Part shown: piece by piece, positions 2 through 30,046 of the stretch | Numbering within the stretch: position 1 is the stretch's first letter | How the letters are laid out: the number at the start of each line of letters is the position of its first letter | DNA from: Elusimicrobiota bacterium | GTDB taxonomy: Bacteria > Elusimicrobiota > Elusimicrobia > 2-02-FULL-39-32 | Assembly (NCBI GenBank): GCA_021730935.1 | Contig: JAKFYJ010000059.1 | Coordinates: forward strand, 1 to 52,239 | Length of the DNA stretch: 52,239 bases | Reading direction: 5' to 3' | Made by a program: the position numbers and the translations under genes | Notes under the pieces: model-generated | What the model saw: only the letters and a program-made list of their open reading frames with translations | The model's database searches: none | What the model was told of the DNA's origin: nothing

Positions 2-2360
2 CACGGTGACGATTCTGTAAAAATAGGTGACGCCTGCGGCGAGGCCTGTGTCGACATAGAAGTTGAAGGGGTGCAGGACGGAGGACGCGAGGACCACATT
101 GGTTTGGGATTTGCTTGAGAAGGAGAATGTGGCCCGATAAACTGCATAGCTTGAGAGGTCCAAGGTGAATGCGGGTGAAACGATGGGGTCCCAGTTGACG
201 CGGATGGAAGACTGGGTGATGTTGGTGGCCGGAGTTGCTGAGGGAGTGGAGATGGAGGGCGGCAAATCTTTGGCCGGGGCGGAGCTGAACATGTTGACTC
301 CGGAGTTGGACCAGGAAGAGAGGTTGCCGCCTTCGTCTCTTGTGACGACGGAGAAATAATAAGTTGAGCCGGGGTTCAATCCCGTGACGAGATATCCCTG
401 TTTGGATCCGGCAGAAGCGGAGGTGGAGAGGGTGGTTGAGAAGTGGAGAGGGACGACGGAATTAAAGTTGCTGATGGGTGAAGTGGACCCCTTGATGGAG
501 AAGAGAGAGCCGGGGAGCAGGTTTCCTGTGGACCCGTCGTTGCCTGGAGACGTCCACTGGAGTTCAATTTCTCCGTCGGATGAGCCGCTGAGAGCTGTGA
601 GGCCTGAGATGGCGTCCGGCGGAGTGGCGTCGAAAGAAATAAATCCGAGGTTCAGGAACGGAGTGTCGAGGCCCATGCGGTTGCGGGCTTTGACTCTGTA
701 GTGGAGGACGACGCTGTTGTTGGCGGGGACAGAAGCGGCATAGAGATTGAAGGTGTCTGTGGAGGTGACAGTGCCTGAGAAACCGGACCAGGTGGAGATC
801 TCGGCGATATAGAGGGTGTCGGGAGTGTTGCTGTTGTCGCCCCAGTTGGCTGTGATGGATGTGAGGGTGACGGTGAAGGTGGAGACCAGTGTCAAAGGAA
901 TGTTTGCGAGAGTTGAAGTTGCGGCAGTCGCTGAGAAATTGGTTTGGCCGCCTGTTCTGTGATAGGTGAGGGCTTTGAAATAATATGAAGTGTTGGGCGA
1001 GAGAGATGCGGTGGTGAGAGAAAGCGAGAATGTGTCGCTCGTCGAGAAAATTCCAAAATTATTGTCTGTGGAAATTCTGACCTGATACGAAGTGGGCGGA
1101 GTGAGTTGGTTGCTGTTGTTGGACCATGTGAGGGTGACGGAGCTGGCGCTGACTTGAGACGAAGTGAAAGTGGTCAGAGTGGGAGGGTTGGCGTATGTGG
1201 CTGTGGCGATGATGAGAGTGGATGAAGAAGGCGTGTTATAGAAGTTCAAGGCTCTCATCTGGACGGTATAGGTTGCGTTTGCCAACAAATTGGAAAGTGT
1301 GAGAGAGGTGAATGCTCCATTGCCCAAGACTCCGACGGTGGAGTTGGAGAGCGCAAACGAGCCTGTGGAGAGAGCGACGGTTGTGCCTTCGGGGTTTCCA
1401 TTGGCTGAGAGAGAGATTGTAATACTGGTGGTATATACACTGAAGCTGACGAATCCGGGAGCGCTTGCGAGAGTGGCGGTGGAGAGAGTGGCATAGCCCG
1501 AGGCGTTTTGGAGAGCATCAGATGAAGCGGAGTTCCAGAGAGCTCTTGAACGGATGTAATAAGTGGTGTTGGGACTGAGAGATGAAGGACTGAAGTGGAG
1601 GCCGAGAGATGAGGGAGCGAATGTTTGTGTGGTGACGCCCGTGAAGAAGTTTCTGTTTGTGGAATAAGAAATCTCGAAGGGCATGGGGCTGTTGTTGGAG
1701 CCTTTGTTGATGGTGACTGTGATGCTGTCCAAGGCGACGGAGACGAGAGAGATTGTTGGAAGCACGGGCAATGTGGCTGTGGAGAGAGTGACATAGCCCG
1801 AGGCGTTGGCGTCGAGAGAGCCTGACGGAGCGAGGTTCCAGAGGGTTCGGGTGCGGATGAAATAAGTGGCGCCTGGGAGCAGGTTGCCATATGTTGTCGC
1901 TGAAGAGGAGAGAGAGCCTGTGGAAGAGAACACGGAGGATCTCAGGAGAACGGATCCGAAGGCGGAGTCGGTGGAGATTTGGAGGTTGTATTGGCCGTAA
2001 GCATTGAGCCCTTTGTCGATGGAAAGGGTGATGGCGTTGGTGCTGACAACTGTGACGGACGGCGAAGGAAGCACGGGATAAGTGATGGTGGTGACAGCGG
2101 AACTGAAGATTTCATCAGATTCCGTGGAAACTTTGACCTTGAAGAAAAATGTGGTGTTGCCGAACAAGTTGGAATAACTCGTGGTGTTCGCTCCGAGGGT
2201 CCCTGTGCCGGAAGAGAAGACCGTCGAGAAATTTGAAGACGATGAAATCACCATGGTGTAGGCGAGGTTGGCGGCGGGATCCCAGATGACGCTCGCAGAA
2301 CTTTGCGTCATGGCAAAGAACCTGACGCCGGACGGAGCAACGGGCGCGGGATAGGCCGTT
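2..2360 (-). other. C-terminal (in-window) Fn3 array, about eight repeats
   Basis: Repeated Fn3-like units run to the edge. Examples are SASVIWDPAANLAYTMVIS, ITLSIDKGLNAYGQYNLQIS, SVTLTWSNNSNQLTPPTSYQ, LQWTSPGDDG-like units near 500-600 (IELQWTSPGNDGSTGNL), and SIRVNWDPIVSPAFTLDLSS, which runs to VTYFYRIVTV at the edge. The protein clearly continues to the left. Confidence 0.8.
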
Positions 2361-5300
2361 TCTGTTCCGGTGCTGTAAAACGCGGAGGGCGAGCCCTGGT
2401 TGTTGTATTCCGTCGCGATCCAGTCGGCGGAGAGGGCGGTGTTTGCGATCCGGACCTCATCGAGGCGCCCGTCGAAGAATTCAATCCTTGAACTGCACCC
2501 TGCGCCGGAACACCCGGCTCCGATGGAGAGAGGAAGATCGTTTGCTCCGGAAAATGCGCCCGACAATGAATCCACCAAAACGCCGTCATAATAAAAATTG
2601 TCCGATGAGCCGGAATTGACAACAACCAACTGGTGCCACGCTCCGGTGGTCACGGCAACGGCGTTTGAAGTGATGTCCCCCGCGTGATGCCGGGAATAGA
2701 GTCCTGAGCCGTTGAGCCCGAAACCATAATTATAAGCCTGAGTGAGGGCCCCCTTTGTGGCGATGGATTTTTTTCCTGAGAGGGTGTCCGCGTTGAACCA
2801 GGCGACCAGGGTGATTTTGCTGGTGATGTCCAGGGACGCGTTGTCGGCGACATTGACCCAGTCCGAACTGCCGTTGAAATTCGCGCTCCCGCCGAACTGT
2901 CCCGCCGCGGCGATTGCCCCGTTGTTGGTTCCGTGGTTTTTGTTGCTCGTGCTGTCCTGAGTTGTGAGCGCTGTCCCGTTCGGGAAATGCCAGACGCCGA
3001 TGTAATTGCTTTCCCAGACGGCTGTTGAGCTGGAAGGGCTCACGGTGATGGAAGGATTGGAATAGAACATATAATAGACCGTGTCCACAGTGTGAGAGAC
3101 CGTCGGGATCTTGACCCAATAGGCCGCGTTTCCGGTGGCCGCGTTCCAGGTTTCCGTGTCAAAAGCGAGGTTCACCGAGCCGTTGGGGTCTGTGGAGAAA
3201 GTGATGTCATAGCCGTTATTGCTGAAGACCTTGCCGCCGTTGGCTTGCGTGGCGAGATAGGAGAAGGTTCCTCTGAAAAGCACGGGGAAGTTGGAGAGGT
3301 CTGAACCGGATATTTTGGTGTTGTCGATCACGATGGTCCGCCGATAGGCATATCCGTTGGGCCAGGCAGTCAATGTCACGGTGGAAATTGCGGAACTATA
3401 CGAAGCTTCTGAATGGCTTGAGAGTTTTACTTTATAGAAATAGGCTGTGTTGGGAGACAGGTTTGAATAACTCGTGGTGTATTGGTTCAGGGCTCCCGTG
3501 CCCGAAGAGATCACGGATGAAAAGTTTGAGACTGAAGACAAAATCATGGTGTACTCGTTGTTGCTGATCAAATCCGACTGGACCGTCAGAGAAGCAAATG
3601 AAACGCCGATGAACCTGACGTTGGACGGGGGCGGTTCGGGAGAGGCGAGGACCGAGGTGGAGAGCACGGGAGTATATCCGGACGCGTTCAGGAGCAGGTT
3701 CGATCCTGCGGAGTTCCAGAGGGCGCGGGCGCGGATGAAATAGGCCGTGTTCGGGGCAAGACCTGAGGAACTGACCCTCACGCCGAACTGCGAAGAACCG
3801 AAAGTTGCGGTGGTGACGGCGGAAGAGAAATTGCTGACGGAGGAGAAGGAAACTTCAAACGGGAAGTTGTTGTTGTTCGCTCCCGTTGACACGGTGACGG
3901 TCAGACTGTCCAGCGCCGCGGACGAAAAGACGAGGACGGGAAGAACGGGGAGCGTGCAGGTTGAGAGGGAAACATATCCCGAGGCGTTATGCTCAAGGTT
4001 CCCTGCCGCCGCTCCGTTCCAAAGAGAGCGCGCTCTGACATAATAAGAGGCGCCGAGGAGGAGGTTGACATAGGCTGTTGAGGCTCCGGAGAGAGCTGAG
4101 GTTGAACTGAAGACCTGAGCGTTGGATGCGAATCCCGAATCCGTCGAAATCTGGAGGTGATAGTTCCCGCTGGAATTGTTTCCGGAACTGATGACGAGCG
4201 TGATGGAATTGGAGGACAGGGCTGTGACGGAGAGCGAAGGGAGAACCGGATGAGTGTATGTTGAAATTGAGGCATAAGTCGAATCGTCGGCGGTGGAGAG
4301 TTTCACTTTGAAATAATAGGGACGATTGGAGGAAAGGTTTGCATAGCTTGTGGTGTTTTGTCCGGAAAATCCCCGACCGGATGAAATCGTGACTGAGAAA
4401 TCAGCCGAAGTTGAAAAAGCCATTTGATAGGCGTTCCCGGAAGCCAGGCTCCACGAGGCGCTGACCGAAGCAGAGGCGACGGCGAAGAAGCCGGAGTTGG
4501 AAACGGGAGTCATGGTGCTGGGGAGGACATAGTCCCTGATCCAAAGGTAATTTGAGGATGTTCCGGCGGCATAGACATGAGTTCCATCCACTGCCGCGAT
4601 TCCATTCCCGTTGTCTATATCGCTTCCGGCAGAGGTATATGAAGTGGTCCATTGAACCAGTCCTCCAGGGGAATATCTCCGAATAAAAATATTGTAGTCT
4701 TGTCCCAGGTCTGAGCGGTTCTCCTGCCCTGTGACATACGCATTTCCTGAAGCGTCGACCGCGACGCTGTGCCCGTAATCTGCTCCATTCCCCGGATCAT
4801 CATAAGAATCTGTCCACAGGACGGAACCATCCGAGGCGTATTTTCTGATGAAAATGTTATAGTTTTGCCCCAGGTCCGTGCGTTCTTCGTATCCCGTGAC
4901 ATAGGCGTTTCCTGAAGCGTCCACCGCGATGCCTTGGCCGTAATCATTCCCATTCCCCGGATCATCATAGAAATCTGTCCACAGGACGGATCCGCTGGCG
5001 GCATATTTCCTGACGAAAATGTTATAGTTTTGTCCCAGGTCGTCGCGTTTTGCATATCCCGTGACATACGCCTTGCCTGAAGCGTCCACCGCGATGCCCT
5101 TTCCGAAATCATCACCATTTCCAGGATCATTATATGAATCTGTCCACAGGAGGGTTCCATTGGGAGCATATTTCCTCACTAAAATATTATAGTTTTGTCC
5201 CAAATCCGTGCGTTCTTCGTAACCCGCAACATAGACATTGCCTGAAGCGTCCACGGCGATGCCGGATCCGGAATCATTTCTATTCCCAGGGTCGTTATAC

Positions 5301-26300: not shown

Positions 26301-29300
26301 GTGGAGATGCTTGCCGTATACCCCGAAGCGCCCAAGAGCAGATTGCTTCCTGCGCTGTTCCAAAGCGCGCGGGCGCGGATGAAATAAGTCCCCCCGGTGG
26401 TCAGGCCGGAGAAACTTGAGATTCCAGACAAGACATTGGAAGTGCTGACGGGCGTGACGAAATTGACGCTCGTGGAATAAGAAATTTCATAGAGGCCCTC
26501 TGCATTGTTGCCGCCTTTGGCGACGCTCACCGTGAAGCTGGAGAGGGCTGTGCCGACGAGGGAGATCGCGGGCAACACGGGTTTGCAGGCGGTGGAGATG
26601 GAATTGGCGTATGTTGTTGCGGAACCATAAACGGCGCCTGTCCTGAAATAATAAGTCGTGTTGGAGTTCAAAGATGCGATGGATAAGGCGGGCAGGACAT
26701 TGTTGATCGTGGACGAAGTGAACACGATGTTTTGCGGCGCAAAGGCGCTGTCGGTGGAGGCGTCGAGCGTGTATCCGTCGGGGTTGGAAGCAGGGCTCCA
26801 GGCGACGGTGACGGAGGTGATCGACACAACCGTGACGCTGGAGAACTGCGGCGGGCCGAAGACCCAGTTTATGTTGTTGCCGGAATTGACCGACGAAGAA
26901 TCTGCGTATATGGTTTGGCCGAGCGATGCGTCGGAATCCTTCACATCGACATTGCGGACCTGCTGGGTGGCGCCCGAAACAAGAGCGATTTTCCAGCGCG
27001 TGCCTTCGCTTGCGCTCCGGAGCCCCACTTTTGTTCCTGACAAAGATCCCAGGTCAAGGCGGCCCGTGACGGTGACGCTGGAGTTTCCGGTTGCAAACTG
27101 AATTGTGGATCCAGGCGTGAGAGCGGAGAAGGTGGAGGCGGTGATGCTCTCCAGAAATTTAACTCCGTTTATCCAAGTATTCGTGATGGAAAGATAAGCA
27201 AAAGTGTTGGTGGAGGCGCGGATCGTTTGTGTTCCCGTGCCGTTGAATGTGAAAGTGCTGGTCCCCGCATTGAACTGGGCGGAACCGGTGCTGGTGAAGT
27301 TTCCCGCGATGCTGAAGGAAGAGTTTTGTGCGTTGAAGGTTCCGGAAGAAAGGACCATATTGCTTGCAATTCTCCACTGGCTGGAACCGGCATTGAATGT
27401 GAAGGGGAGAGACGGGTTGAAGGTGAGGTTGGTCGCGGACACGCTGGGGTTGTTGGTGTTGGCGTCCAAAGTGAGGTTCCCGCTCGCGCCGTTGTCGGTG
27501 ACCGTGAGAGCAGTTCCATAAGCATGGGTGCCCGCGGCCATCACAGCCTGGATGCCCGAATTTCCATTCACATTTGAGATTTCAACACCGGAGCCGGCAT
27601 AAGATCTTGCCGGAATTATTGTCGTGTTGTCGTCCAGCCAGAACTTCGTGATGATGTTCATGCTTCCTGCGGAGTCAAAGATGACGCCCCGGTTGAGGAT
27701 CACTTTTCCGAAGCCCGCCTGGTTGATTGAACCCGTGACAGTGAGAGTGGAGCCAGGGACTGCATACAAAGCGACCGCAGTGATCGTGAGGGTTCCCCGG
27801 ACACTCATTTGTCCGCTGAAACAGGCGTCGTTGCTGGAAAGAGTGGCGGTGCCGAGGAGGTTGAAGTCGTTGAAATAACACGGGCTCGTTGTTGTGGCGC
27901 TGAGACGGGTGATGGTTTTGCTTGCGCCGATCATGTTGATGGTTCCGGTCCCCCTGTCCCACGGGCCCACGGGGACATTGATCGCGAGGTTGCCGCTGAG
28001 CGTGAGGGTGGAGCTTCCAGAGTTGAAGAATCCGTCGTTGATCGTGAAATTGCCCAAAGATCCTCGGAGCGTGATGGAAGACGCGTTGGCGTTGAAGGTT
28101 CCACTGCTCACCTTGAAAGGTCCGTCTATCGTGAACGTCGATGTCCGCGCATAAAAAGTTCCGCAATGGATGCTTATGCTCGAAGCGGTAATGGAAAAAC
28201 TCGAAGTGTCCACGGACCCGGGATATCCTCCGATGGTGGAAGTGCTGAGGGTGAGGGTGGAGACTGTGATGTCGGAATCCAGTTTGCAGGCGCCCGCGCC
28301 GTGAGAATCAAAAAATGCGGCAGAGCCTGTGCTGGGAACTCCCACGCCTCCCGGCCCGCCGGAAGCATAGGACCAGTTGGCGGCGTTGCTCCAAACTCCC
28401 GGAGCAGAAGCCACCCAATAGAATGTTCCGCCCGAAAAGAGCCAATTGACATTGTTTCCGGAATCGGTGCAGGAGCCGGAGCAGTATATGGGCGCGCCGC
28501 TGGAAGCGTCCGAATCCGCAACATCGACATTCTGAACCTGTTGAGCGGCGCCGGGAGTGAGCGTGAGGTTCCAGCGGTTTCCTGGGACTCTGCTTCGGAG
28601 CCCCACTTTGGCTCCTGACGTCGGGCCCAGAGCCAGGCGGCTCGTGACGGTCAGGCTGGAGGTCCCGGTGTTGAATTGCAGAGTGGTTCCGGCAGAAAGC
28701 GCGGTGAATGTGGAGACCGACAAACTGTCTTTGAAGCGCACGCCGTTCACGGAAGTGTTGGTGATGTCCATATAGGCGAAGGTTTGGGTGGAGGCGGTGA
28801 TGTTTTGCTGAGCGGAACCGTTCAGGGAGAAGGTGCTCATGGCGGCGGCAAAAATGCTGTCGGTGCTGAAGGTCACATCTCCGCCCACAGAGAAGATGGT
28901 CCCGTCGCCTTCGTTCGCGGGAGCCGTGTCCGCGGCATCGATGGTTCCTGATCCGATCACCACGAGGTCTCCCGTGAGAGTGACTTCATACCCCTTGGTG
29001 TTATAAACATCGCCCATATTCACCGTGAGACTGGCCGCGCTCAGATCGCTCCCAAGAGTGATCGTGTCGGGGCTGGCGCCGATGATCACATTTCCCAGGT
29101 CCTGGTTGTTGCTGGTGAGAGTGAGGTTTCCCGCGAATTTGATTTTTCCCGTTCCCGCGTCTTTGGTGAATGTTCCCGGAGCCAGAACCGTGTGGCTGGT
29201 GATGACGAGATTATTGTTCGTCCCCTGAATGAACGAGCTCCCGCTCTGCGCCGTGAGGTTATAAAAAGTCGCCGGCCCTGAAAGTTCCAGAGTGTTTCCG

Positions 29301-30046
29301 CTTGCGAGAGTCATGGTGGACACACAGTTCACGCGCGACATATAAATTTTATTTCCGTTCAGGTTGATCGGAGTTCCCTGCAAGGTGAACCCGCCGCCCG
29401 CTTCGCCCTGCAGAGTCACGCTGTTGGCGGAGTTGGAAACTTTGATGGTCCCGGAATTGACGAAGACAGACCCTGTCCGCATCGTGATCGTCACAGATTG
29501 TCCGGACCCGTCCAGGTCCAGCTCTCCGTTGACCGTGAGCGAAGACATCGTCACGGGCGCTGTGGCTGTCAGCACGCTCCCAACCTTGATGTTGACCGCG
29601 TCGCCGGAACTTGGAACGATGCCCCAGGCCCAGGTGGCCGGATCATTCCAGAGCCCGTTGCCCTGGTTCACATATGCGGCGAGAGTCTGGGTGGAAGTGG
29701 GGAGCGTGTATTCCGGTTCAGTGGAAATCTTGACCTGAAAATAATAATAGACATTCGGAGAAAGCCCGGAATAGCTTGTGGTGTTCCCATTCAGAGGCCC
29801 GGTCCCGGAAGACAGGAGCGTGGAGAAGTTGGAGTTGGTGGAGAGGATCATGGTGAAGGAGTTCCCGCTATACTGGGACCAGTTGATGCTGATGGAATCT
29901 GTCGCGACGGAAAACACCTGGAGTCCCGGCATGGGAAGAAGGATGGAGGCCTGCGCGCGAGCGAACAATCCGAACAATGCGAGACCCGCAAGCATGAAGC
30001 GCTTGCAAGCTGATTTTTTTTGGAAAAGTTTTTTTAGAATGCGCAT
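2..30046 (-). CDS. Giant secreted multidomain protein (Fn3/G8/beta-helix/FG-GAP/LamG/SBBP), 3' end outside window
   Basis: A single minus-strand frame is open from the ATG at 30046 to the window edge, at least 10,015 codons. I decoded it near 28.4, 22.9, 17.9, 13.6, 10.1, 9.2, 4.9, 3.4 and 0.1 kb and always found the same phase. I did not hand-translate every codon, but no stop-terminated minus-strand frame of comparable length exists here. It starts with a signal peptide (residues 1-33). Approximate residue order is: Fn3 36-116; stitched beta-helix-like region 123-1063; Fn3 pair; G8/helix cassette I 1253-2156; Fn3; cassette II 2390-3253; Fn3; FG-GAP 3730-4066; Fn3; FG-GAP 4503-4850; Fn3; LamG 5053-5273; Fn3; cassette III 5463-6236; Fn3; FG-GAP 6363-6710; Fn3; LamG 6936-7146; Fn3; SBBP 7450-7830; Fn3; SBBP 8120-8513; Fn3; DUF2341 and LamG 8893-9226; Fn3 to the edge. 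The composition is rich in Ser, Thr, Asn and Tyr and poor in Cys. The likely role is a surface or secreted adhesin or glycan-binding giant; no catalytic site was recognised. How it is anchored or exported cannot be seen because the C terminus lies outside. Confidence 0.93.
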   Translation of the reverse strand, partial: MRILKKLFQKKSACKRFMLAGLALFGLFARAQASILLPMPGLQVFSVATDSISINWSQYSGNSFTMILSTNSNFSTLLSSGTGPLNGNTTSYSGLSPNVYYYFQVKISTEPEYTLPTSTQTLAAYVNQGNGLWNDPATWAWGIVPSSGDAVNIKVGSVLTATAPVTMSSLTVNGELDLDGSGQSVTITMRTGSVFVNSGTIKVSNSANSVTLQGEAGGGFTLQGTPINLNGNKIYMSRVNCVSTMTLASGNTLELSGPATFYNLTAQSGSSFIQGTNNNLVITSHTVLAPGTFTKDAGTGKIKFAGNLTLTSNNQDLGNVIIGASPDTITLGSDLSAASLTVNMGDVYNTKGYEVTLTGDLVVIGSGTIDAADTAPANEGDGTIFSVGGDVTFSTDSIFAAAMSTFSLNGSAQQNITASTQTFAYMDITNTSVNGVRFKDSLSVSTFTALSAGTTLQFNTGTSSLTVTSRLALGPTSGAKVGLRSRVPGNRWNLTLTPGAAQQVQNVDVADSDASSGAPIYCSGSCTDSGNNVNWLFSGGTFYWVASAPGVWSNAANWSYASGGPGGVGVPSTGSAAFFDSHGAGACKLDSDITVSTLTLSTSTIGGYPGSVDTSSFSITASSISIHCGTFYARTSTFTIDGPFKVSSGTFNANASSITLRGSLGNFTINDGFFNSGSSTLTLSGNLAINVPVGPWDRGTGTINMIGASKTITRLSATTTSPCYFNDFNLLGTATLSSNDACFSGQMSVRGTLTITAVALYAVPGSTLTVTGSINQAGFGKVILNRGVIFDSAGSMNIITKFWLDDNTTIIPARSYAGSGVEISNVNGNSGIQAVMAAGTHAYGTALTVTDNGASGNLTLDANTNNPSVSATNLTFNPSLPFTFNAGSSQWRIASNMVLSSGTFNAQNSSFSIAGNFTSTGSAQFNAGTSTFTFNGTGTQTIRASTNTFAYLSITNTWINGVKFLESITASTFSALTPGSTIQFATGNSSVTVTGRLDLGSLSGTKVGLRSASEGTRWKIALVSGATQQVRNVDVKDSDASLGQTIYADSSSVNSGNNINWVFGPPQFSSVTVVSITSVTVAWSPASNPDGYTLDASTDSAFAPQNIVFTSSTINNVLPALSIASLNSNTTYYFRTGAVYGSATTYANSISTACKPVLPAISLVGTALSSFTVSVAKGGNNAEGLYEISYSTSVNFVTPVSTSNVLSGISSFSGLTTGGTYFIRARALWNSAGSNLLLGASGYTASISTFITVTNALITSARSGNWSSPGTWLGNVVPVSGNKVSIDAGHIVMLDQNATVGDDISTTAVKILGTLTWGTPPADNFTLTARGSVEVMSGGSLLMGSVASPIPANRIATLVLNSTATANPYGLTIYDGGTLIAQGAARDYTTTLSASAGFGDTAISINSASEIDGWNIGDEITVGKYAKGPSTEKRTITNIAGTQITLDSALINTHAAPAIVSNLTRNAVIKGADSTYRGYILNNNVTALANFNLDFAQISYMGQNITNKWGVTFTTNARGTVDYSSLHEGQYGLFLQKSSSNSFSNNLAYRNSANGIYLTLGTSNTFTANHLYYNTDYGIYFNGQSGQVNNNVLASNKVYNNLASYGIYVNADSGQANNNTLTSNQVNGLSNYGIYFSGTNGQLNSNTFDSNHIYENGGAGVFFYGGGSCQISNNIFASNQIHNNSGAGIYFEGQRVNNNSFSSNQIYANVYGITLYGYSSQLNNNTIRSNQIFGNTNQGVLLWGASGRANNILASNLVYGNRNGGIHLYYSFSDILVSNQIYGNTYNGIYLNNAVNDTLVNCSMGYDASGNSLPNSSSEIYFDYSGPANAVSKNSRINPSNGVDTSVLNRSDNYLLSYSHNQTPGLVQLWGDYQTFGSTLSLEYANQLYVSTWTSPKLMRGLGHGATVTATNDSAAQSEYVSITFSGGVWLASGTVSGLMGTFSGSQPGGWSPAGSQFTLNFTQGPSPQDGDFVDFVTIAASGDSGIQKKLYMGNAASAWNNGHSRLTINSTGTFKAIGTAQYPTLIDRIDSSNTYYTLLSSGSGIIQMQDFYVAHVDTDGFKFISTPSTMTLRNGIFDYGMSAGSTRTLIQLSSVTNTATWDGISFRDSDAVYVSSPSNVRVNPGAGNNPAWTFTNWGGTRGGESFDFDHSDKISWIADATSPGFITALTALTDTNDTVQLQWASPGDDGWSGQLVSGSQYKIQYSSWTNPDQIPWSTANAQVAISTNGVSAGTTQGYLVNNLLSGRVQYFRAWTSDPEGNWSALSAGGTAYVNDVSAPGAVTNLSVSSVSAAGTAILTWTSPGDNGYAGVLTSSTFLIQFSTSANGNLQGLWSPTTAQVSIATASVVQGSTVTYQINGLTSGKTHYFRLWTLDEAGLMSAISNGATSYVPRGTLILSNPAASPSNWSNPATWVGGVVPGSGDTVQISAAHIVTLDQSVTVGDDIVSTAVKVLGTLTWGTPTSSVTLTARGSVEIMSGGSLVMGSEGSAVPAGYAASLILASTSTANPYGLTVYNGGTLLTQGAAKNNAAWLLSQSAAGSVSILAANAADIADWKAGDWITVAEQERGNNSIATEKRAVASISGSQINLDSALTYTHFSSCSITNLTRNVVIRANASGFPAYLLNKNQTSQNNFKIRNTEMAYLGQQVNDKWGVTFTTNSLGSIDGSSIHEGYAGLYLYQSSTNTFSNTLIYGNSWDGIYMVLSASNTFASNQIFANANRGVYLDTSFRNLFTSNQIYANNGNLGIGLVNNSVENTLSYNQVHSHCCLFSLGIQVSSVRNKLISNVAFFNNFDDIDVEGSFTTLIGNRIPMTSNIGSIDLYGGSNNTLISNVAYNGSNGVYIRTTGNLLASNLFFNNSNGIYQEYYTGSNVFIANKLYNNSNYGLYANGGIQHTYANNSLGYDEFGNSKPNSLNEIYPIYGGITILKNNKINSGGIATSGMNTPEAYVLSYQHNQVPGEVHLWGDYNTFGSTLSLEYANQLYSSTVTIPKVMMGTGHSASVTRSSDAFAVSQIIVIEYRSGQWHIDGTESGADMIAPFTGSLVNYPVPITNTQFNLTFTPSASPQQDDRLDFALIAAAGDANVQKKLYFHSVDSTWNSGRSRLTINSTGTFKAIGTAAYPTIIDRIDSSNTYYTLLSSGSGIVQLQDFYIAHIDTDGFKFISTPSTMTLRNGIFDYGMSAGSTRTLIQLSSVTNTATWDGIAFRDSDGASPSNVRVNAGARNNPNWTFTNWSGNRGGPSFEYDLGNKIAWDASDVTAPDTITSLTQLTVTASDKVELTWISPGDDAPVTGNLASPAQFAIQVSTWILNPSTSSLNDAGQTFHVYIPTQSIVTTPQGKIVTGLLPSSTYFFRIWAMDEAANWSGIPDAATGYTLNDAISPAAVSDLTALTDSSEGRILLNWTAPGDDELTGNIGGGLFRILASSTQITASNFASPPPVTFITDISTSVSVGSKQGYLLTGLNPGTSYFFALKTRDDNSNWSTWGIASNVNRLSSAPVRDVAPNAPTGVSFFSVNATSITLNWVDALAPTYVNDLDKYWIYRATYSFNSKTDPFVTHVATVDYLSPTSTVTASAEGSTVYYRITAVDLGNQGNGLFSTRLESNLTTVISTLIPNTAPSAITSLSALPGSAFTNIRLTWVSPGDDALSGNLVAGSSYTVQYTTSDVFTGWASTGSQYAYVYTVNRATANIAPYTVQVEEITGLTFSTTYYIRMWTRDETGNVSGMSVGATSYAHGFELISMFGGVATPVGSIASDLDNDGDLDLVEVGPAGFTKTWINNGNGSFTLSWTAPQSNFIGQIDMGDYDGDGDPDLLESHFSGPNAFTQIFRNDGGTFSLAWSSPFDTTNSQNIGAAKWGDFDNDGDLDFVETPTKVYRNEGNGNFTMVWASTETSIGNGITSILPGDYNNDGYLDFALGRYVFKNNGDLTFTRAAQASSDVILVGVGDYDNDGDLDIISALNCCGVTSAVLRNDGNFTFTSVWSAPQTDASPVLKWADFDNDGNLDILSGGGVISPIIYLNKGSNNFQTTSILSGRGTAAGLIPGDFDADGDVDFIYPEFVGQTYYYKSNHVESGSAANTAPSAPNTFSTLYYSTAAQLQMRWSGAADAETSANGLYYDLQVATETITDSLRHFVVSPTTGAGASPLFGNARYANGSVGFNLSNVQGQQTYYWRVRTRDNGFKTSAWSAVQSLAIAIPASPANVRFIGTTASSASLIWDNVVGNAYNMVISSKSDFSLVASSGIGMTNQNTTSYSNLVPGTLYNFKVKLSSAGDDSYSPTISSTTYPAIPSFAASTFTFVGISSITVAWSANGNPGDTLTTYYVLISTWNGFTGAVTSSGTFVTNVTTAGLLSQTSYYFKVKARSYYGNDSAYFDLSSTMTLSGPDVSSPSAITSLSALPGSAFTNIRLTWVSPGDDALTGNLVAGSSYTVQYTTSDVFTGWDPSAAQPNFVYRVNRATSGVTPYTVQVEEITGLTFGTTYYIRMWTRDEAGNVSGMSPGATSYPMTFYSSQTLTASLGTKYDTVPGDFNNDGYLDIGAGSSFSSSGQPAAWRNNKNGTFTEIALYGSNIGNAAMDWGDFDGDGYLDVVLGASVGNNLRVMRNNGDGTFTTTWMAPDTLGTYNARFGDFDNDGSLDLMVLYDSNFMRLYKNNGGNSFSLVWQSTNTITLWRAFVVGDFNNDGYLDFAMPNNTSHNTLIFKNNGDNSFTQAATLSASGENPRNVVTGDYDNDGDLDLLVYDPVKMQVWRNDGNFSFTSVATITGDGFGGEGADWADIDNDGDLDIVARSNSSVASLNVYENRGGNNFNLISQSRVGYVVGIQLMDSDNDGDLDIVNTSGGNGGDGIYASNRVQSGGSANSAPSTPSSGFYSNYFSTSAQLQLRWGNGSDAESNVNALGYEIRVATQNITDSLRSYIVSDTTGAGKWPYFGGANHHRVALNVNGMNLTNVMDDTTYYWTVRTRDLQGGYSSWCAVQSTFIAAAAPSHVSIFNVNSSSISIKWDLHDARSYTMALSTDINFSVNASSGTGALNQNVTSYASLTGATSYYFKVKVSTMGDGYYSAYVTTQTGSGPVGWWKLDDGSGIVAVDTSGYGNNGTLTLGPTWTSGVSSGAVQFDGVNDYVGITNSSSLTNYTQKSVFMWVNGTGSGDIYSNGYWTSPFGDLIQRTPSSDSQKIYVYLKNTIGTVAQSPFNCYSNFAINAWNYIGYTWDGYTVTYYFNGASVGSNSITGTLSGTGDNLYLGSRGGAVAFNGFIDDVRIYNRALSASEVANLYTSYGVPAVPSNVNFFSTDISSISANWSLATGNSYTMVLSTTSDFVATSSSFTGSLNQVTTSYAGLGANTTYFFKVKVSTNPDLSYSGYISTATKPVLPTLSLVSVSSYSITVVVGTGTNGANTPFELSVSSTPNFFTNVTTTTYGSSFIGTQVSTTGLNVSATYYIRARALWNSASNNLLHGASGYTPVLVSTTIGAPHATWALSKKTGNWSDTNTWVDGFVPLNLSSVTIVSGHTVTVDISSAVASTTSITGTLSFSRSVNNAILTLSSGDITINSGGTLDMGTSGSPIPSGTTAQLYLSSGNYAGQFGLIVSNGGVFTVYGAAKNPATTGYKQGGGNITPSDQSITVADATGWQNGDLVTIDTEAVYISGLAGNNFNITPVTLVHFSTYPIRINNLTRNVLVRSSGTDVNTNTAYIQNYSQTYANFNINYGEFAYLGANLTDKKGINFVPSNPTGSVSSSTIRDCFQGLRLYAGINSNIVSNNVYRNISKGVYLQTTAVRNKLDSNNIYANGDVGLYLQDQSNNNTIINNNIYSNLSGMTFNDGSSNTLTSNNIYKNTAGGVYFLNSKNNLLTMNLIFSNTGDGISFQGNSDNNVFTSESIFSNTSFGFNYQGSNGNICASCNIGYSSSGISADNLLGNLRVYPGYSEVIVIKDSKVRSIVTSGFDTAGTYLLNYSTTPGVLQVYGDYSVSGSTLSLDYATRLSSAVALNLKVMKGAQSVSNFSVSALSDANAVSQLISIEYNGANWIVTGSSTTGTLCTIGASAGADCGSPTQFHLDIGGAAASSGDRADFALIAATNDLATQKKLQFVATTGSGYNNDRSRISIDSTGGFVARGQSATANPTIIGSLDSGKYYSFSDSGAFTASFSSFTNMDSNGIWLNGPNAVAIDYSSFNVVASNGGVSTLFTLNSVTPSTFTLTGNTFGNAGPATTKYNYTILGSSSGLSWSNIASTGVLNGDNFENNDQGNRISWAASVADLTAPSDITSLSALPGSAFTNIRLTWVSPGDDALSGNLVAGSSYTVQYTTSDVFTGWDPSAAQPDFVYRVSRATSGVTPYTVQVEELTGLTFGTTYYIRMWTRDEAGNVSGMSPGATSYPMTLVSSNSFTTFTGNTYDAMPVDINNDGWMDVAMPRRSSPAGQIANNNKNGSFSLLSILGTDILNLSMDWGDFDGDGIMDVALGADAGNNFKIVKNNGNATFTSVWSGPDTLASNGGMRFGDFDNDGDLDLMVAYEDDGFIRLFGNDGGSNFTQVWQSTSSGVTPVGTSNNNSGRIAVGDFNNDGLLDFALCNGISNNLLTFKNNGDNTFSQMVSIPMVNANRDAVFADYDNDGKLDLLALNQNNVKVFQGDGNFGFTLAATITYGSSNVTADWADIDNDGDLDIVLGASTSGEMTRIYENKGGNNFQLLITYTNTITAYGTRFFDSDNDGDLDLANIGSSGGTRSIFTSNRVQSGGSANSAPSAPSSGFYSNYFSSSAQLQLRWGNGSDAESNVNSLGYEIRVATQNITDSLRSYIVSDTTGAGKWPYFGGANHHRVALNVNGMNLTNVMDDTTYYWTVRTRDLQGGYSSWCAVQSTFIAAAAPSHVSIFAVNSSSMSIKWDLHDARSYTMALSTDINFSVNWSSGTGALNQNVTSYASLTGATSYYFKVKVSTMSDGYYSAYVTTQTGSGPVGWWKLDDGSGIVAVDTSGYNNNGTLTNGPLWTSGVSSGALSFTSASGQYVSIGNPSSLQISGDISMCAWAYPTSVSQFFLSKSDGSTRDYAMYISAARYLTLYSDTNQYNSNPTTISNNAWSHVCVTVGDTIITYYINGTSYTFGQTTTISNHNKSLSIGRDGSNAGFPYDGQMDDVRIYNRALSASEVLALYNANAFPALPSNVKFFATDISSLSARWDLASGNSYTSVVSTSSDFIVIAGSGTGGLNINTTSYAGLGSNTTYYFKVKVSTNPDLSYSVPISTATRPVLPDLTIVSVAVDSITVFVSTGLNARASPFEISFSSTSNFSSAVTTATLPASSMNLHVSSSGLMSGTSYYVRARALWNSAGSNLLFGASGYTAVISTNTLHTVDYTISTLSASTGPFEGAVTLLWTWPETLPAGSTYYIQYSTNSSEPWNSSNAQIVQSTEAASGTTESRTIGGLDIGVDGSNADISPNYYFRAWISSGTNALSSVSNSAASKPALPILPSTAYSNFGADVGWQSAITDQAPEALAIARDSSGNIFVTGNISNNLFVRKLNSAGTVLWTKFYNSPANHGGGGNVGQGISVDVSGNAYVAGSEDRSDLGQQSNLFVRKYAADGSVLWTSSYDDPGNGADVGSGIAVDASGNVYVTGYEERTDLGQNFNILVRKHAPSGTLLWTDSYNDPGNDDDFGKGIAVDASGKAYVTGYEKRDDIGQNNNIFVRKYNSDGSVLWTDSYDDPGNGNDYSRGIAVDASGSAYIAGSENREDIGQNDNFFVRKYAVDGSVLWTSSYDDPGNGEDAGKGIAVDASGNVYVTGYEERTDLGQNFNIFIRRYSPGGLAQWTTSYTSDGSNSDIGNGIAAVDGTHVYAAGTSSNYLWIRDYVLPSTMTPISNLRFFAVSESSASAAWDLASGNAYTVAISTSNDFSVILSSGLTPVGQNTTSYANLVPGGIYTLRVKISTQPDDTFAAASTSTLVVAPGTAAFSPSDVHATHITFRWLSNGNPSGTLYQANVSTSLDFVPFTSSQTSSSLFISTRGLSFGTSFFFRVRAVNYFNLASSWSAAAGTVTLSSADYAITDLSASTGPFEGAVTLRWTWAETLPAGSSYYIQYSTNPSEPWSFSNAQIVQSTQASSGTQGRRTIGGLDIGVDGSNADISPNYYFRAWISTETNALSSVSNSAASKPALPALPATSLSNFGADIGWQSSITDQDSEGDAIARDASGNIFVTGGVSNNLFVRKMNSSGTVSWTKFYNSRDNHPDSSNYGAGIAADASGNVYVTGTEDLYASGQRDNLIVRKYAADGTLLWTDSYNDPGNRNDSGSGIAVDASGNVYVAGYEERTDLGQNYNILVRKYAPNGTLLWTDSYNDPGNGDDFGKGIAVDASGKAYVTGYAKRDDLGQNYNIFVRKYAASGSVLWTDFYDDPGNGNDYGQGIAVDASGNAYVTGYEERTDLGQNYNIFIRKYASDGSVLWTDSYDDPGNGADYGHSVAVDASGNAYVTGQENRSDLGQDYNIFIRRYSPGGLVQWTTSYTSAGSDIDNGNGIAAVDGTHVYAAGTSSNYLWIRDYVLPSTMTPVSNSGFFAVASASVSASWSLASGNAYQMAFSTSADFSVTISSGRGFSGQNTTSYANLSSNRPYYFKVKLSTADDSTYASISTYTHPVLPSLSVTALSSNSITLVISSGNNSSGNYHLQISTDSGFASNAQVFSSTSALSGASTAYVNLLLGASYYVRARSLWNGAAAGNLEHNASGYVSLSTCTLPVLPVLVFSSAALDSLTVTVSTGANNNNFPFEVSFSSVSNFSSAVTTATFGSSQFGVRVSSSGLAPNTAYFIRARALWNSAGSNLLLNASGYTPVLSTSVLASPEPPPSNVRFIGVSFASLTVQSDLISNNEYTMILSSVSNFSSVISSGTGALNQYTTSYSNLSPNTAYFYKVKLSSHSEASYSSAISTVTLTAWPNGYAYRRTIVIDNTKISGSDLSNFPVLFRGTFSYLATQANGGKVFSNNGYDITFSTDPNGSVNLAFDTETWNAATGNAAYWVKIPTVSHTVDTVYYMFYSNPSITVSPSSSTAVWESNYIGVWHFPNGTALTTQDSTSNKNHGTNNGAIAAAGQFGGSANFNGSSDWVNVADNASLDITSKITLVAWFNADTLSGKKSIATKGALTQAYNYGFGLNGSGLYSRHHAGDITSNAVAVTTGAWHQLVVVNSGSSDNFYYDGVLVDSLSGAFSGANDLPLSIGAGCSGAGCSSRIEFFDGRLDEVRIANTALSADWIATEYNNQGSPSAFYSTGTETAYPAPVAPSGVRFFAMTQSSASVIWDPAANLAYTMVISSSSNFSTVFSSGTGTLGANTTSYSNLFGNTTFFFKVKVSTESDEIFSSAVTTITYPVLPSPSVTVVSTNAITLSIDKGLNAYGQYNLQISTDSAFGSVLLRSSVFSSTGSLSSSATTYGNLLPGATYFIRTRTLWNLAPSGSLDANASGYVTLSTATLPVLPTISLVSVALDSITVTINKGSNNSPMPFEISYSTNRNFFTGVTTQTFAPSSLGLHFSPSSLSPNTTYYIRSRALWNSASSDALQNASGYATLSTATLASAPGFVSFSVYTTSITISLSANGNPEGTTVALSTGSFALSNSTVGVLGNGAFTSLTLSNLLANATYTVQMRALNFYNTPSSSTLIIATATYANPPTLTTFTSSQVSASSVTLTWSNNSNQLTPPTSYQVRISTDNNFGIFSTSDTFSLSLTTASLSPNTSYYFKALTYHRTGGQTNFSATAATSTLANIPLTLVSTFTVTLTSITANWGDNSNTPDTLYIAEISTWSGFSGTVTSTDTFNLYAASVPANNSVVLHYRVKARNRMGLDTPFLNLGFISFDATPPDAISGLTALSGSSDGEIELQWTSPGNDGSTGNLLPGSLFSIKGSTSPISNFNSVVPLHFSTTLSTSASAGSKQGYLVTGLNPGSTYYFSVVTRDEGGNLSSWSNSGVNMFSSAPAKDLPPSISTPSATPATNITQSSIRVNWDPIVSPAFTLDLSSYAVYRATFSFSSKSQTNVVLASSVLHPFNFYVDTGLAAGVTYFYRIVTV
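2370..3020 (-). other. LamG/concanavalin-like domain after DUF2341
   Basis: The domain reads NYIGVWHFPNGTALTTQDST, NHGTNNGAIAAAGQFGGSAN, FNGSSDWVNVADNASLD, ITLVAWFNADTLSG, WHQLVVVN and FYYDGVLVDS. It ends GRLDEVRIANTALSADWIAT, EYNNQGSPSAFYS. The DUF2341-LamG pairing is a common one in secreted bacterial proteins. It contains GAGCSGAGCSS, one of the few Cys clusters. Confidence 0.82.
3020..3370 (-). other. DUF2341 domain
   Basis: Reads WPNGYAYRRTIVIDNTKISG, then DLSNFPVLFRGTFS, FSNNGYDITFSTDPNGSVNL, WVKIPTVSHTVDTVYYMFYS. The YRRxIxIDN opening and the DITFSTDPNGxxxLxFDxE core are characteristic of DUF2341, often found directly before a LamG domain as here. Confidence 0.8.
3370..4500 (-). other. 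Fn3 array between SBBP II and DUF2341
   Basis: About four Fn3-like repeats with alternating subtypes. One type ends TSYANLSSNRPYYFKVKLS. The other carries YYVRARSLWNGAAAGNL or YFIRARALWNSAGSNLLL, a RALWNSAGS signature that recurs at 8090-8170, 13680-13760, 26330-26400 and 1500-1900. Confidence 0.75.
4510..5680 (-). other. SBBP seven-bladed propeller II
   Basis: Seven blades; the blade at about 4800-4930 was decoded directly (IAVDASGNAYVTGYEERTDL, then GQNYNIFIRKY and GSVLWTDSY). The last about 100 bp (4508-4604) are identical to the end of propeller I, and the flanking Fn3 domain is also shared, so this is a recent in-frame duplication at an offset of about 2.05 kb. Confidence 0.82.
5690..6550 (-). 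other. Fn3 domains between the SBBP propellers
   Basis: Decodes to about three Fn3-like repeats, such as ASAAWDLASGNAYTVAISTS, ITFRWLSNGNPSGTLYQANV and GAVTLRWTWAETLPAGSSYY. A near-identical copy of the last unit (GAVTLLWTWPETLPAGSTYY) precedes SBBP propeller I at about 7690-8060. Confidence 0.75.
6560..7690 (-). other. SBBP seven-bladed propeller I
   Basis: Seven repeats of about 54 residues of the type GIAVDASGNVYVTGYEERTD, LGQNxNIFVRKY, GSVLWTDSYDDPGNG. The last blade reads GIAAVDGTHVYAAGTSSNYL, then WIRDYVLP. This is the SBBP (beta-propeller repeat, PF06739-like) pattern; seven units should close one propeller. Confidence 0.8.
8610..9240 (-). other. LamG/concanavalin-like domain
   Basis: Decoded directly as GPVGWWKLDDGSGIVAVDTS, followed by CAWAYPTSVSQFF, WSHVCVTVGDTIITYYING and LSIGRDGSNAGFPYDGQMDD, ending VRIYNRALSASEV. 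This is a typical LamG_3 jelly-roll of about 200 residues. Nearly the same as the domain at 14230-14880 at both ends, with a diverged centre. Confidence 0.82.
9920..10960 (-). other. FG-GAP/VCBS beta-propeller III (seven Ca-loop repeats)
   Basis: The loops are DINNDGWMDVAM, DFDGDGIMDVAL, DFDNDGDLDLM, DFNNDGLLDFAL, DYDNDGKLDLLA, DIDNDGDLDIVL and DSDNDGDLDLAN. I decoded ADWADIDNDGDLDIVLGAS directly from 10081-10138. Seven loops match a complete seven-bladed propeller. Confidence 0.82.
11340..13660 (-). other. Cassette III: G8 domain, parallel beta-helix, beta-sandwich
   Basis: The G8 part reads GNWSDTNTWVDGFVPLNLSS ... ITGTLSF ... ITINSGGTLDMGTSG (about 13370-13655). The beta-helix (about 12280-13000) has rungs such as NNTIINNNIYSNLSGM and FTSESIFSNTSFGFNYQG and contains ICASCNIGYSSSG. 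A sandwich part follows, including SGSTLSLDYATRL and FALIAATNDLATQKKLQF. It is the most diverged of the three cassettes and its helix is shorter. Confidence 0.75.
14230..14880 (-). other. LamG/concanavalin-like domain
   Basis: The domain opens with GPVGWWKLDDGSGIVAVDTS and GNNGTLT. It contains VFMWVNG, WNYIGYTWDGYTVTYYFNG and LYLGSRGG, and closes with FIDDVRIYNRALSASEV, the usual end of LamG_3 (laminin-G/concanavalin A-like jelly-roll) domains. It is expected to bind carbohydrate or calcium. Closely related to the domain at 8610-9240. Confidence 0.8.
15500..16540 (-). other. FG-GAP/VCBS beta-propeller II (seven Ca-loop repeats)
   Basis: Seven loops are read in order: DFNNDGYLDIG, DFDGDGYLDVVL, DFDNDGSLDLM, DFNNDGYLDFAM, DYDNDGDLDLLV, DIDNDGDLDIVA and DSDNDGDLDIVN. 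The layout and spacing equal propeller III, but the sequences between the loops have diverged more than the flanking Fn3 domains. Confidence 0.8.
16540..17840 (-). other. Fn3 array between FG-GAP propellers I and II
   Basis: This stretch decodes to Fn3-like repeats, including the long NTAPSAP...QLQMRWSGAADAETSANG unit that ends in TYYWRVRTRDNGF. It then has two or more shorter repeats with TSYSNLVPGTLYNFKVKLSS signatures and the IRLTWVSPGDDAL type next to the propeller. Confidence 0.7.
17850..18850 (-). other. FG-GAP/VCBS beta-propeller I (seven Ca-loop repeats)
   Basis: Seven aspartate loops of the DxDxDGxxD type can be read: DLDNDGDLDLVE, DYDGDGDPDLLE, DFDNDGDLDFVE, DYNNDGYLDFAL, DYDNDGDLDIIS, DFDNDGNLDILS and DFDADGDVDFIYP. 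Between them lie VWxNNGNxxFTxVW-type strands. Seven such loops match one seven-bladed, calcium-binding propeller of the integrin-alpha/FG-GAP type. The flanking Fn3 domains are shared with propellers II and III. Confidence 0.8.
18860..20290 (-). other. Fn3 array (about four repeats)
   Basis: The frame decodes to several Fn3 units: DKVELTWISPGDDAPVTGNL, GRILLNWTAPGDDELTGNI, SITLNWVDALAPTYVNDLDK and IRLTWVSPGDDALSGNLVAG. Each is followed by the family's YYFRxW or YYIRMWTRDE strand. The last one is repeated almost unchanged upstream of the FG-GAP modules at 15500-16540 and 9920-10960. Confidence 0.75.
20290..22880 (-). other. Cassette II: G8 domain, parallel beta-helix, beta-sandwich
   Basis: The G8 part reads NWSNPATWVGGVVPGSGD ... 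VKVLGTLTWGTP ... GSVEIMSGGSLVMG (about 22590-22870). The beta-helix (about 21230-22260) has repeats such as NTFASNQIFANANRGVYLD and LISNVAYNGSNGVYI. The sandwich and terminal block (about 20290-21230) is nearly the same as in cassette I: the DNA at about 20400-20690 matches 23690-23980 with few changes and encodes DTDGFKFISTPSTMTLRNG in both. Confidence 0.75.
22880..23580 (-). other. Fn3 pair between G8 cassettes I and II
   Basis: Two Fn3-like repeats of the subtype LQWASPGDDG...YKIQYSSW and LTWTSPGDNG...FLIQFSTS, each ending in YFRAWTSDPEGNWS or YFRLWTLDEAGLMS. This SPGDD-type Fn3 recurs at 18860-20290, 16540-17300 and 10960-11340, always next to a G8 cassette or an FG-GAP propeller. Confidence 0.75.
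23580..26290 (-). other. Cassette I: G8 domain, parallel beta-helix, beta-sandwich
   Basis: The cassette begins with a G8-type domain (GNWSSPGTWLGNVVPVSG, then VKILGTLTWGTP and GSVEVMSGGSLLMG, roughly 25990-26285). It continues with many PbH1-like turns of the type NNNTLTSNQVNG/SNQIYGNTYNGIYL (roughly 24540-25640), the regular Asn ladder of a right-handed parallel beta-helix. It ends in a beta-sandwich-rich part containing LWGDYQTFGSTLSLEYANQL and a second helix-like block. G8 domains are known from PKHD1, CEMIP/KIAA1199 and TMEM2, where they precede beta-helices. Homologous to cassettes II and III. Confidence 0.75.
26860..29690 (-). other. N-terminal stitched G8-like/beta-helix-like region (two related halves)
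   Basis: After the first Fn3 come long runs of short Ser/Thr-rich beta strands typical of right-handed beta-helix or passenger-type folds. They open with a G8-like stretch (WNDPATWAWGIVPSSGD). Two halves each end in a related block: NVDVADSDASSGAPIY followed by SGNNVNWLF near 28440-28540, and NVDVKDSDASLGQTIY followed by SGNNINWVFG near 26860-26960. The DNA around 28566-28700 and 26986-27115 is clearly homologous, so this part arose by in-frame duplication. A few Cys occur in the first half (CSGSC near 28470). No enzymatic motif was recognised. Confidence 0.65.
29948..30046 (-). other. Signal peptide of the giant protein
   Basis: The N terminus has a Lys/Arg-rich n-region (MRILKKLFQKKSACKR), a hydrophobic core (FMLAGLALFGLFA) and a plausible signal peptidase I site ARAQA|S after residue 33. 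No lipobox Cys is placed for signal peptidase II. The mature chain begins at once with the first Fn3 domain. No clear Shine-Dalgarno lies within 15 nt of the ATG; an AAGGAA is about 20 nt upstream. Confidence 0.85.

What the first reader, a model, noticed from the sequence alone, without database searches (positions are those of the whole stretch)
2..30046. One reading frame of more than 10,000 codons, still open at the window edge
Seen: the same minus-strand phase decodes into recognisable domains at ten or more points from 30046 to 2, with a signal peptide at the start. Known: giant genes occur in few lineages, for example Omnitrophota. Inference: a secreted or surface giant of at least 1 MDa whose domains (LamG, G8, FG-GAP, Fn3) all point to adhesion or glycan contact, perhaps for predation or attachment. 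Its mix of five propellers and three G8/helix cassettes may be undescribed.
Basis: partly seen in the sequence, partly recalled or inferred. Interest (0 to 1): 0.9.

Follow-up and report, generated by a model that had tools for sequence, protein, structure and literature searches.

The report
Giant Elusimicrobial surface adhesin, probably SprA-exported
This is the first 10,015 codons of a real, selected-for giant bacterial surface protein, at least 1.06 megadaltons and cut off by the contig end; its relatives carry a sorting tail and sit beside carrier and pore genes of a secretion system usually described only from Bacteroidetes and their allies.

Summary
Minus-strand 30046..2 is one frame of 10,015 codons without a stop. 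It opens with a Sec-type signal peptide and runs off the end of contig C16 (the window is the whole contig). It is under purifying selection (dN/dS 0.06-0.23 between internal repeats) and contains no exact repeat over 102 bp. Content: three G8/right-handed-helix cassettes, a two-copy N-terminal module with a fourth weak G8, three FG-GAP and two SBBP propellers, three LamG domains, DUF2341, many Fn3/Ig linkers.

The organism belongs to Elusimicrobiota, where giant genes are already reported. The new part is the likely export route. The genome has an SprA-like translocon (76/80 genomes of the class; its profile finds only Flavobacterium SprA in the PDB), at least 18 PorV-family carriers, and about 27 T9SS-type tails. 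13 of 27 tails are followed directly by a PorV gene, as are two sister giants; complete G8-bearing relatives in two genomes show the same. Best explanation: a Ca-stiffened, glycan-binding adhesin exported through SprA and held by its own PorV. This giant's own C terminus is missing, so that step is inferred. A shared promoter box suggests co-regulation. Predation is unsupported.

The parts
2..30046 (-). giant reading frame, 10,015 codons, open at contig end
30102..30129 (-). promoter box TGTTACAAAAAAGTTACGAAATTTATAC, shared with another giant, a T9SS-type cargo operon and a two-component operon
29945..30046 (-). Sec signal peptide MRILKKLFQKKSACKRFMLAGLALFGLFARAQA-S
   Evidence: sequence; no lipobox; same type of start in the C11 giant
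29675..29962 (-). first Fn3-like module (the family recurs through the protein)
   Evidence: own profile; Pfam fn3 only weakly
26852..29716 (-). N-terminal two-copy module (aa 111-545 and 541-1065, 41% identical), partial G8 at 29375-29635; otherwise no Pfam match
23597..26272 (-). cassette 1: G8 + right-handed beta-helix + unnamed conserved ~300-aa module
20312..22861 (-). cassette 2: G8 + beta-helix + unnamed module; AF2 model, Foldseek to polysaccharide lyases/tailspikes and TMEM2
18827..20281 (-). run of Fn3 domains
17822..18826 (-). FG-GAP beta-propeller 1 (6 DxDxDG)
15497..16546 (-). FG-GAP beta-propeller 2 (5 DxDxDG)
14252..14854 (-). LamG/ConA-like domain 1
11327..13651 (-). cassette 3: G8 + beta-helix + unnamed module (most divergent)
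9872..10951 (-). FG-GAP beta-propeller 3 (5 DxDxDG)
8627..9226 (-). LamG/ConA-like domain 2
6557..7666 (-). SBBP beta-propeller 1 (55-aa repeats)
4517..5626 (-). SBBP beta-propeller 2 (55-aa repeats)
2357..3379 (-). DUF2341 + LamG/ConA-like domain 3
2..2359 (-). C-terminal run of Fn3 domains, cut by the contig end

Best explanation
The frame encodes a giant extracellular adhesin of an uncultured Elusimicrobiota bacterium. Shown: one intact frame, signal peptide, domain content, purifying selection, paralogous giants, an SprA homologue, PorV genes paired with tail-bearing genes, and a shared promoter box. Inferred: the protein crosses the inner membrane by Sec. Its missing C terminus carries a T9SS type A-like tail (FlgD-like Ig fold), as in complete G8-bearing relatives. 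The tail is taken up by an SprA-type outer-membrane pore and handed to a PorV-family barrel encoded just downstream, which keeps the protein on the surface. Outside, Ca-binding propellers and Fn3/Ig linkers make a long stalk, and LamG domains and G8/helix cassettes bind polysaccharide on particles, matrix or other cells. A sensor kinase and OmpR-type regulators whose operon carries the same promoter box probably switch it on.
For: Intact, selected frame. Domains. Fold of cassette 2 matches polysaccharide lyases/tailspikes, and TMEM2, a G8 protein. SprA-like protein in own genome and in 76/80 class genomes; a profile of 17 of them finds only F. johnsoniae SprA in the PDB, E 6e-17. TIGR04183 tails: 27 hits, 25 over cut-off. 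PorV_fam: 18 over cut-off. A PorV gene follows within 600 bp in 13 of 27 tails, against ~0.1 expected, and follows sister giants C13 and C46. Five complete-ended G8 proteins in G018/G019 end in TIGR04183 over cut-off; a PorV-like gene is next in four and one gene further on in the fifth; four of the PorV genes were scanned and all exceed the cut-off. The promoter box has 5 sites with at most 1 mismatch in 2.7 Mb and none in the reversed control; one site precedes a histidine kinase/OmpR-family operon.
Against: This frame's own C terminus is not in the assembly. Some related giants end otherwise: a 5,915-aa G8 protein (G020) and C41 lack the tail, and several G018 proteins have a diverged tail not scored here. 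The SprA hits are below the family's cut-off of 200 bits. The PorU peptidase was not found, but that search was silent in controls too. Motor parts GldK-N were not searched. TIGR04183 also hits the Deinobacterium control, so the tail alone is not specific. No expression data.
Confidence: 0.62

Rival explanations
1. A giant surface adhesin, but anchored or released by another route, through the second C-terminal domain type seen in the same genome (C41) and in the G020 G8 protein, without T9SS-type tail or PorV.
For: The complete 5,915-aa G8 protein of G020 and the 3,264-aa C41 protein share a different C-terminal domain (by eye); the G020 one has no NCBIfam match.
Against: Five complete-ended G8 proteins in two other genomes have the tail with PorV close by; the promoter box is shared with a tail-bearing cargo operon.
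Confidence: 0.2
2. The exosortase encoded in the window (34241-36778) processes the giant through a PEP-CTERM-like signal.
For: Exosortase/EpsI fusion and a PrsT-like TPR protein lie 1-7 kb upstream of the giant.
Against: No PEP-CTERM match in the genome, though controls were silent too; no complete sister giant read here ends in such a signal. Exosortase with EpsI commonly belongs to exopolysaccharide loci (own knowledge).
Confidence: 0.04
3. The giant is a secreted polysaccharide-degrading weapon for predation, the G8/helix cassettes being enzymes.
For: Cassette 2 folds like capsule lyases and tailspikes; giants in Omnitrophota and related phyla have been read as predatory.
Against: No lytic domain; the conserved HEG stretch of close cassettes is RDC in cassette 3; model confidence is moderate (pLDDT 66).
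Confidence: 0.1
4. The long frame is an assembly artefact or a decaying gene.
For: Metagenome-type assembly with repeats; the contig breaks inside the gene.
Against: Longest exact repeat 102 bp; repeats keep frame; dN/dS 0.06-0.23; no stop; other giants of 6,181 and 15,660 codons in the same genome.
Confidence: 0.03

Closest known systems
Giant genes of Omnitrophota/Elusimicrobia (PMC10066038; West-Roberts et al. preprint as cited in PMC12057145; PMC11573180)
   Same: Very long single frames in the same or neighbouring phyla; LamG and adhesion domains in some
   Different: Omnitrophota giants often have many TM helices and few known domains; this one shows no strong internal TM segment, is dense in named domains, and its relatives have T9SS-type tails and PorV genes
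T9SS type A cargo (Bacteroidota)
   Same: Sec signal peptide; complete relatives have a TIGR04183 tail; PorV-family partner; SprA homologue present
   Different: Own tail not seen; many PorV paralogues next to single cargos instead of one general PorV; no PorU peptidase found; SprA below cut-off
T9SS type B adhesins such as SprB with carrier SprF
   Same: Large adhesins, each with its own carrier (PMC12635249 states dedicated carriers)
   Different: Carriers here are PorV family, tails are type A-like
CEMIP/TMEM2 (animal G8 plus beta-helix proteins)
   Same: G8 domain followed by right-handed helix; TMEM2 ectodomain among Foldseek matches, E 1.5e-6
   Different: About 10% identity, low TM-score, no known catalytic match; capsule lyases score better

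Membership tests
T9SS type A cargo | N-terminal Sec signal peptide | tested here: met
   read directly from the sequence; no predictor run
T9SS type A cargo | C-terminal sorting domain (TIGR04183) in this protein | not testable with these tools
   contig ends first; present in complete-ended G8-bearing relatives
T9SS type A cargo | PorV carrier in the genome | tested here: met
   NF033709, 18 over cut-off
T9SS | SprA/Sov translocon | tested here: inconclusive
   129.6 bits against cut-off 200; profile finds only SprA in PDB, E 6e-17; homology clear, equivalence not
T9SS | PorU sortase peptidase | tested here: inconclusive
   PF01364 0 of 21 genomes, controls silent; NF033707 matched only by tails
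T9SS | GldK-N/PorK-N energising core | not tested
PEP-CTERM/exosortase substrate | PEP-CTERM signal at C terminus | not testable with these tools
   C terminus missing; none in genome but controls silent
Giant genes of the Omnitrophota/Elusimicrobia kind | single ORF longer than 20 kb in such a lineage | tested here: met
   30 kb frame; relatives are Elusimicrobia MAGs
CEMIP/TMEM2-like G8 proteins | G8 followed by right-handed beta-helix | tested here: met
   Pfam G8 and Beta_helix in all three cassettes
CEMIP/TMEM2-like G8 proteins | hyaluronan-degrading activity | not testable with these tools
   needs biochemistry

The most novel reading that the evidence does not exclude
Elusimicrobiota possess a class-wide SprA/PorV export system outside the FCB superphylum, in which each giant adhesin travels with and stays bound to its own PorV paralogue (carrier-per-cargo), and this explains how megadalton proteins reach and stay on their surface.
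Probability: 0.5. Interest if true: 0.82.

Novelty: new variant of a known kind. Interest (0 to 1): 0.62.

Why it matters
How bacteria export proteins of a megadalton or more is an open question for the giant genes of Elusimicrobiota, Omnitrophota and allies. The library's papers place T9SS in Bacteroidetes or the FCB superphylum only. An SprA homologue across the class, with PorV genes paired to tail-bearing cargos including giants, gives a concrete and testable export route. It also hints that the system is older or more widespread than described.

Tried and rejected
Contig continuation: first 127 bp of C16 not found elsewhere. Candidate tails at the broken ends of C22, C43, C51, C78 and C87 were read, but none can be tied to C16. 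C43 looks like another, glycine-rich gene type. PorU: only the tail part matches; Peptidase_C25 none, controls silent. PEP-CTERM none, controls silent. phmmer of the single SprA-like protein against the PDB found nothing; the 17-member profile did. Plasmids hold no relative of cassette 2. No paper found in the library describes T9SS in Elusimicrobiota. Poribacteria are reported to carry TIGR04183 tails without the machinery, a warning against using the tail alone. The N-terminal two-copy module was aligned but not folded.

Full report
OBSERVATION. The minus-strand frame 30046..2 is 10,015 codons long without a stop. The window is the whole 52,239-bp contig C16 of a 2.7-Mb, 96-contig, 95%-complete genome, so the gene is cut by the contig end. 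About 388 stops would be expected by chance (P ~1e-172), and the other five frames carry 243-605. Pairs of internal repeats differ mostly at silent sites (dN/dS 0.06-0.23 over the long pairs, 0.35 over one short pair). The longest exact repeats are 102 and 83 bp and keep frame. A misassembly or decaying gene is therefore unlikely. The visible part weighs 1.06 MDa, pI 4.6.

ANATOMY. After a Sec signal peptide and an Fn3-like module comes a two-copy module (41% identical) with a partial G8. Then follow, separated by Fn3 and Ig-like domains: two G8/right-handed-helix cassettes, FG-GAP propellers 1 and 2, LamG 1, cassette 3, FG-GAP 3, LamG 2, two SBBP propellers, DUF2341 with LamG 3, and a last run of Fn3. 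The FG-GAP propellers carry 16 DxDxDG calcium motifs. No strong internal transmembrane segment appears: the top hydrophobic 19-residue windows score 1.8 at most and lie in Fn3 regions. Each cassette ends in an unnamed conserved module. The AF2 model of cassette 2 is moderate (pLDDT 66; G8 and helix well modelled). Foldseek gives capsule lyases and tailspikes first, and the TMEM2 ectodomain.

ORGANISM AND SISTERS. The same genome holds further giants: 15,660 codons (C1), 6,181 (C46), over 6,000 and cut (C11), 3,264 (C41), 3,040 (C13). Those above 5,000 make up about 4.2% of the assembly. Giant genes in this phylum are already reported.

EXPORT. C46, C13 and C1 end in a FlgD/T9SS-type tail (C1 judged by eye and by the match). 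TIGR04183 has 27 hits in the genome. PorV_fam has 38 hits, 18 over cut-off. In 13 of 27 cases a PorV gene follows the tail on the same strand within 600 bp, where about 0.1 is expected; the same holds for C13 and C46. An SprA-like protein of 1,917 aa lies on C30. SprA matches occur in 76 of 80 genomes of the class. A profile of 17 finds only F. johnsoniae SprA in the PDB at E 6e-17. G8-bearing proteins with complete C termini in G018 and G019 end in TIGR04183 over its cut-off. The next gene is PorV-like in four of the five and one gene further on in the fifth; the four PorV genes scanned are over their cut-off. The window giant's own end is missing, and other end types exist (G020 5,915 aa, C41), so its tail is an inference.

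REGULATION. The box TGTTACANNNNNGTTACRAAATTTAYAC occurs at five independent places with at most one mismatch, none in the reversed control: before this giant, before the C11 giant, before a tail/PorV operon on C9, before the adjacent histidine kinase and OmpR-type regulators, and on C43. Direct repeats at 11-bp spacing are typical of OmpR/PhoB-type regulators (own knowledge). The link is inferred.

FUNCTION. Binding domains and calcium-stabilised propellers point to an adhesin. The helix cassettes could be enzymes, but the conserved HEG stretch of close cassettes reads RDC in cassette 3. Predation is not supported by any domain found.

NOVELTY. The giant itself is a new member of a known kind. 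The paired SprA/PorV/tail arrangement in Elusimicrobiota appears undescribed in the papers available here, which place T9SS in Bacteroidetes or the FCB group. Preprints were not searchable.

Noticed in passing
G000:C1:13327-60306 (L128-L130): A complete 15,660-codon frame in the same genome, with signal peptide and T9SS-type tail but no PorV gene directly downstream.
   Followed up: partly
G000:C9:25176-28937 (L090): A small gene that is little more than signal peptide plus T9SS-type tail, followed by PorV, diverging from a sensor kinase (Cache, HAMP) and response regulators; both sides carry the promoter box.
   Followed up: partly
window 34241-36778 (+): Exosortase/EpsI fusion next to a PrsT-like TPR protein (31078-32913).
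   Followed up: partly
G000:C41 C terminus (L040) and G020:C7:193099-210843 (L050, L051): A second kind of C-terminal domain on Elusimicrobia giants; the G020 copy has no NCBIfam match.
   Followed up: no
window 14855-15496 and 9227-9871: Ig/Fn3 blocks 97% identical in protein but with dS 0.34: strong constraint after duplication.
   Followed up: partly
G000:C8 and C81, 519-3761 (L069, L070): Contig ends encoding near-identical proteins at the same coordinates, possibly strain variants in the MAG.
   Followed up: no
G000:C51, C78, C87 contig ends: Contigs break inside T9SS-type tails, in two cases nearly identical ones, so repeated tails probably fragment these genes in short-read assemblies.
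   Followed up: partly
G020:C14:98109-130904 (L046, L047): Another giant, 10,932 codons and open at the contig end, with cassettes 30-33% identical to those of the window.
   Followed up: no
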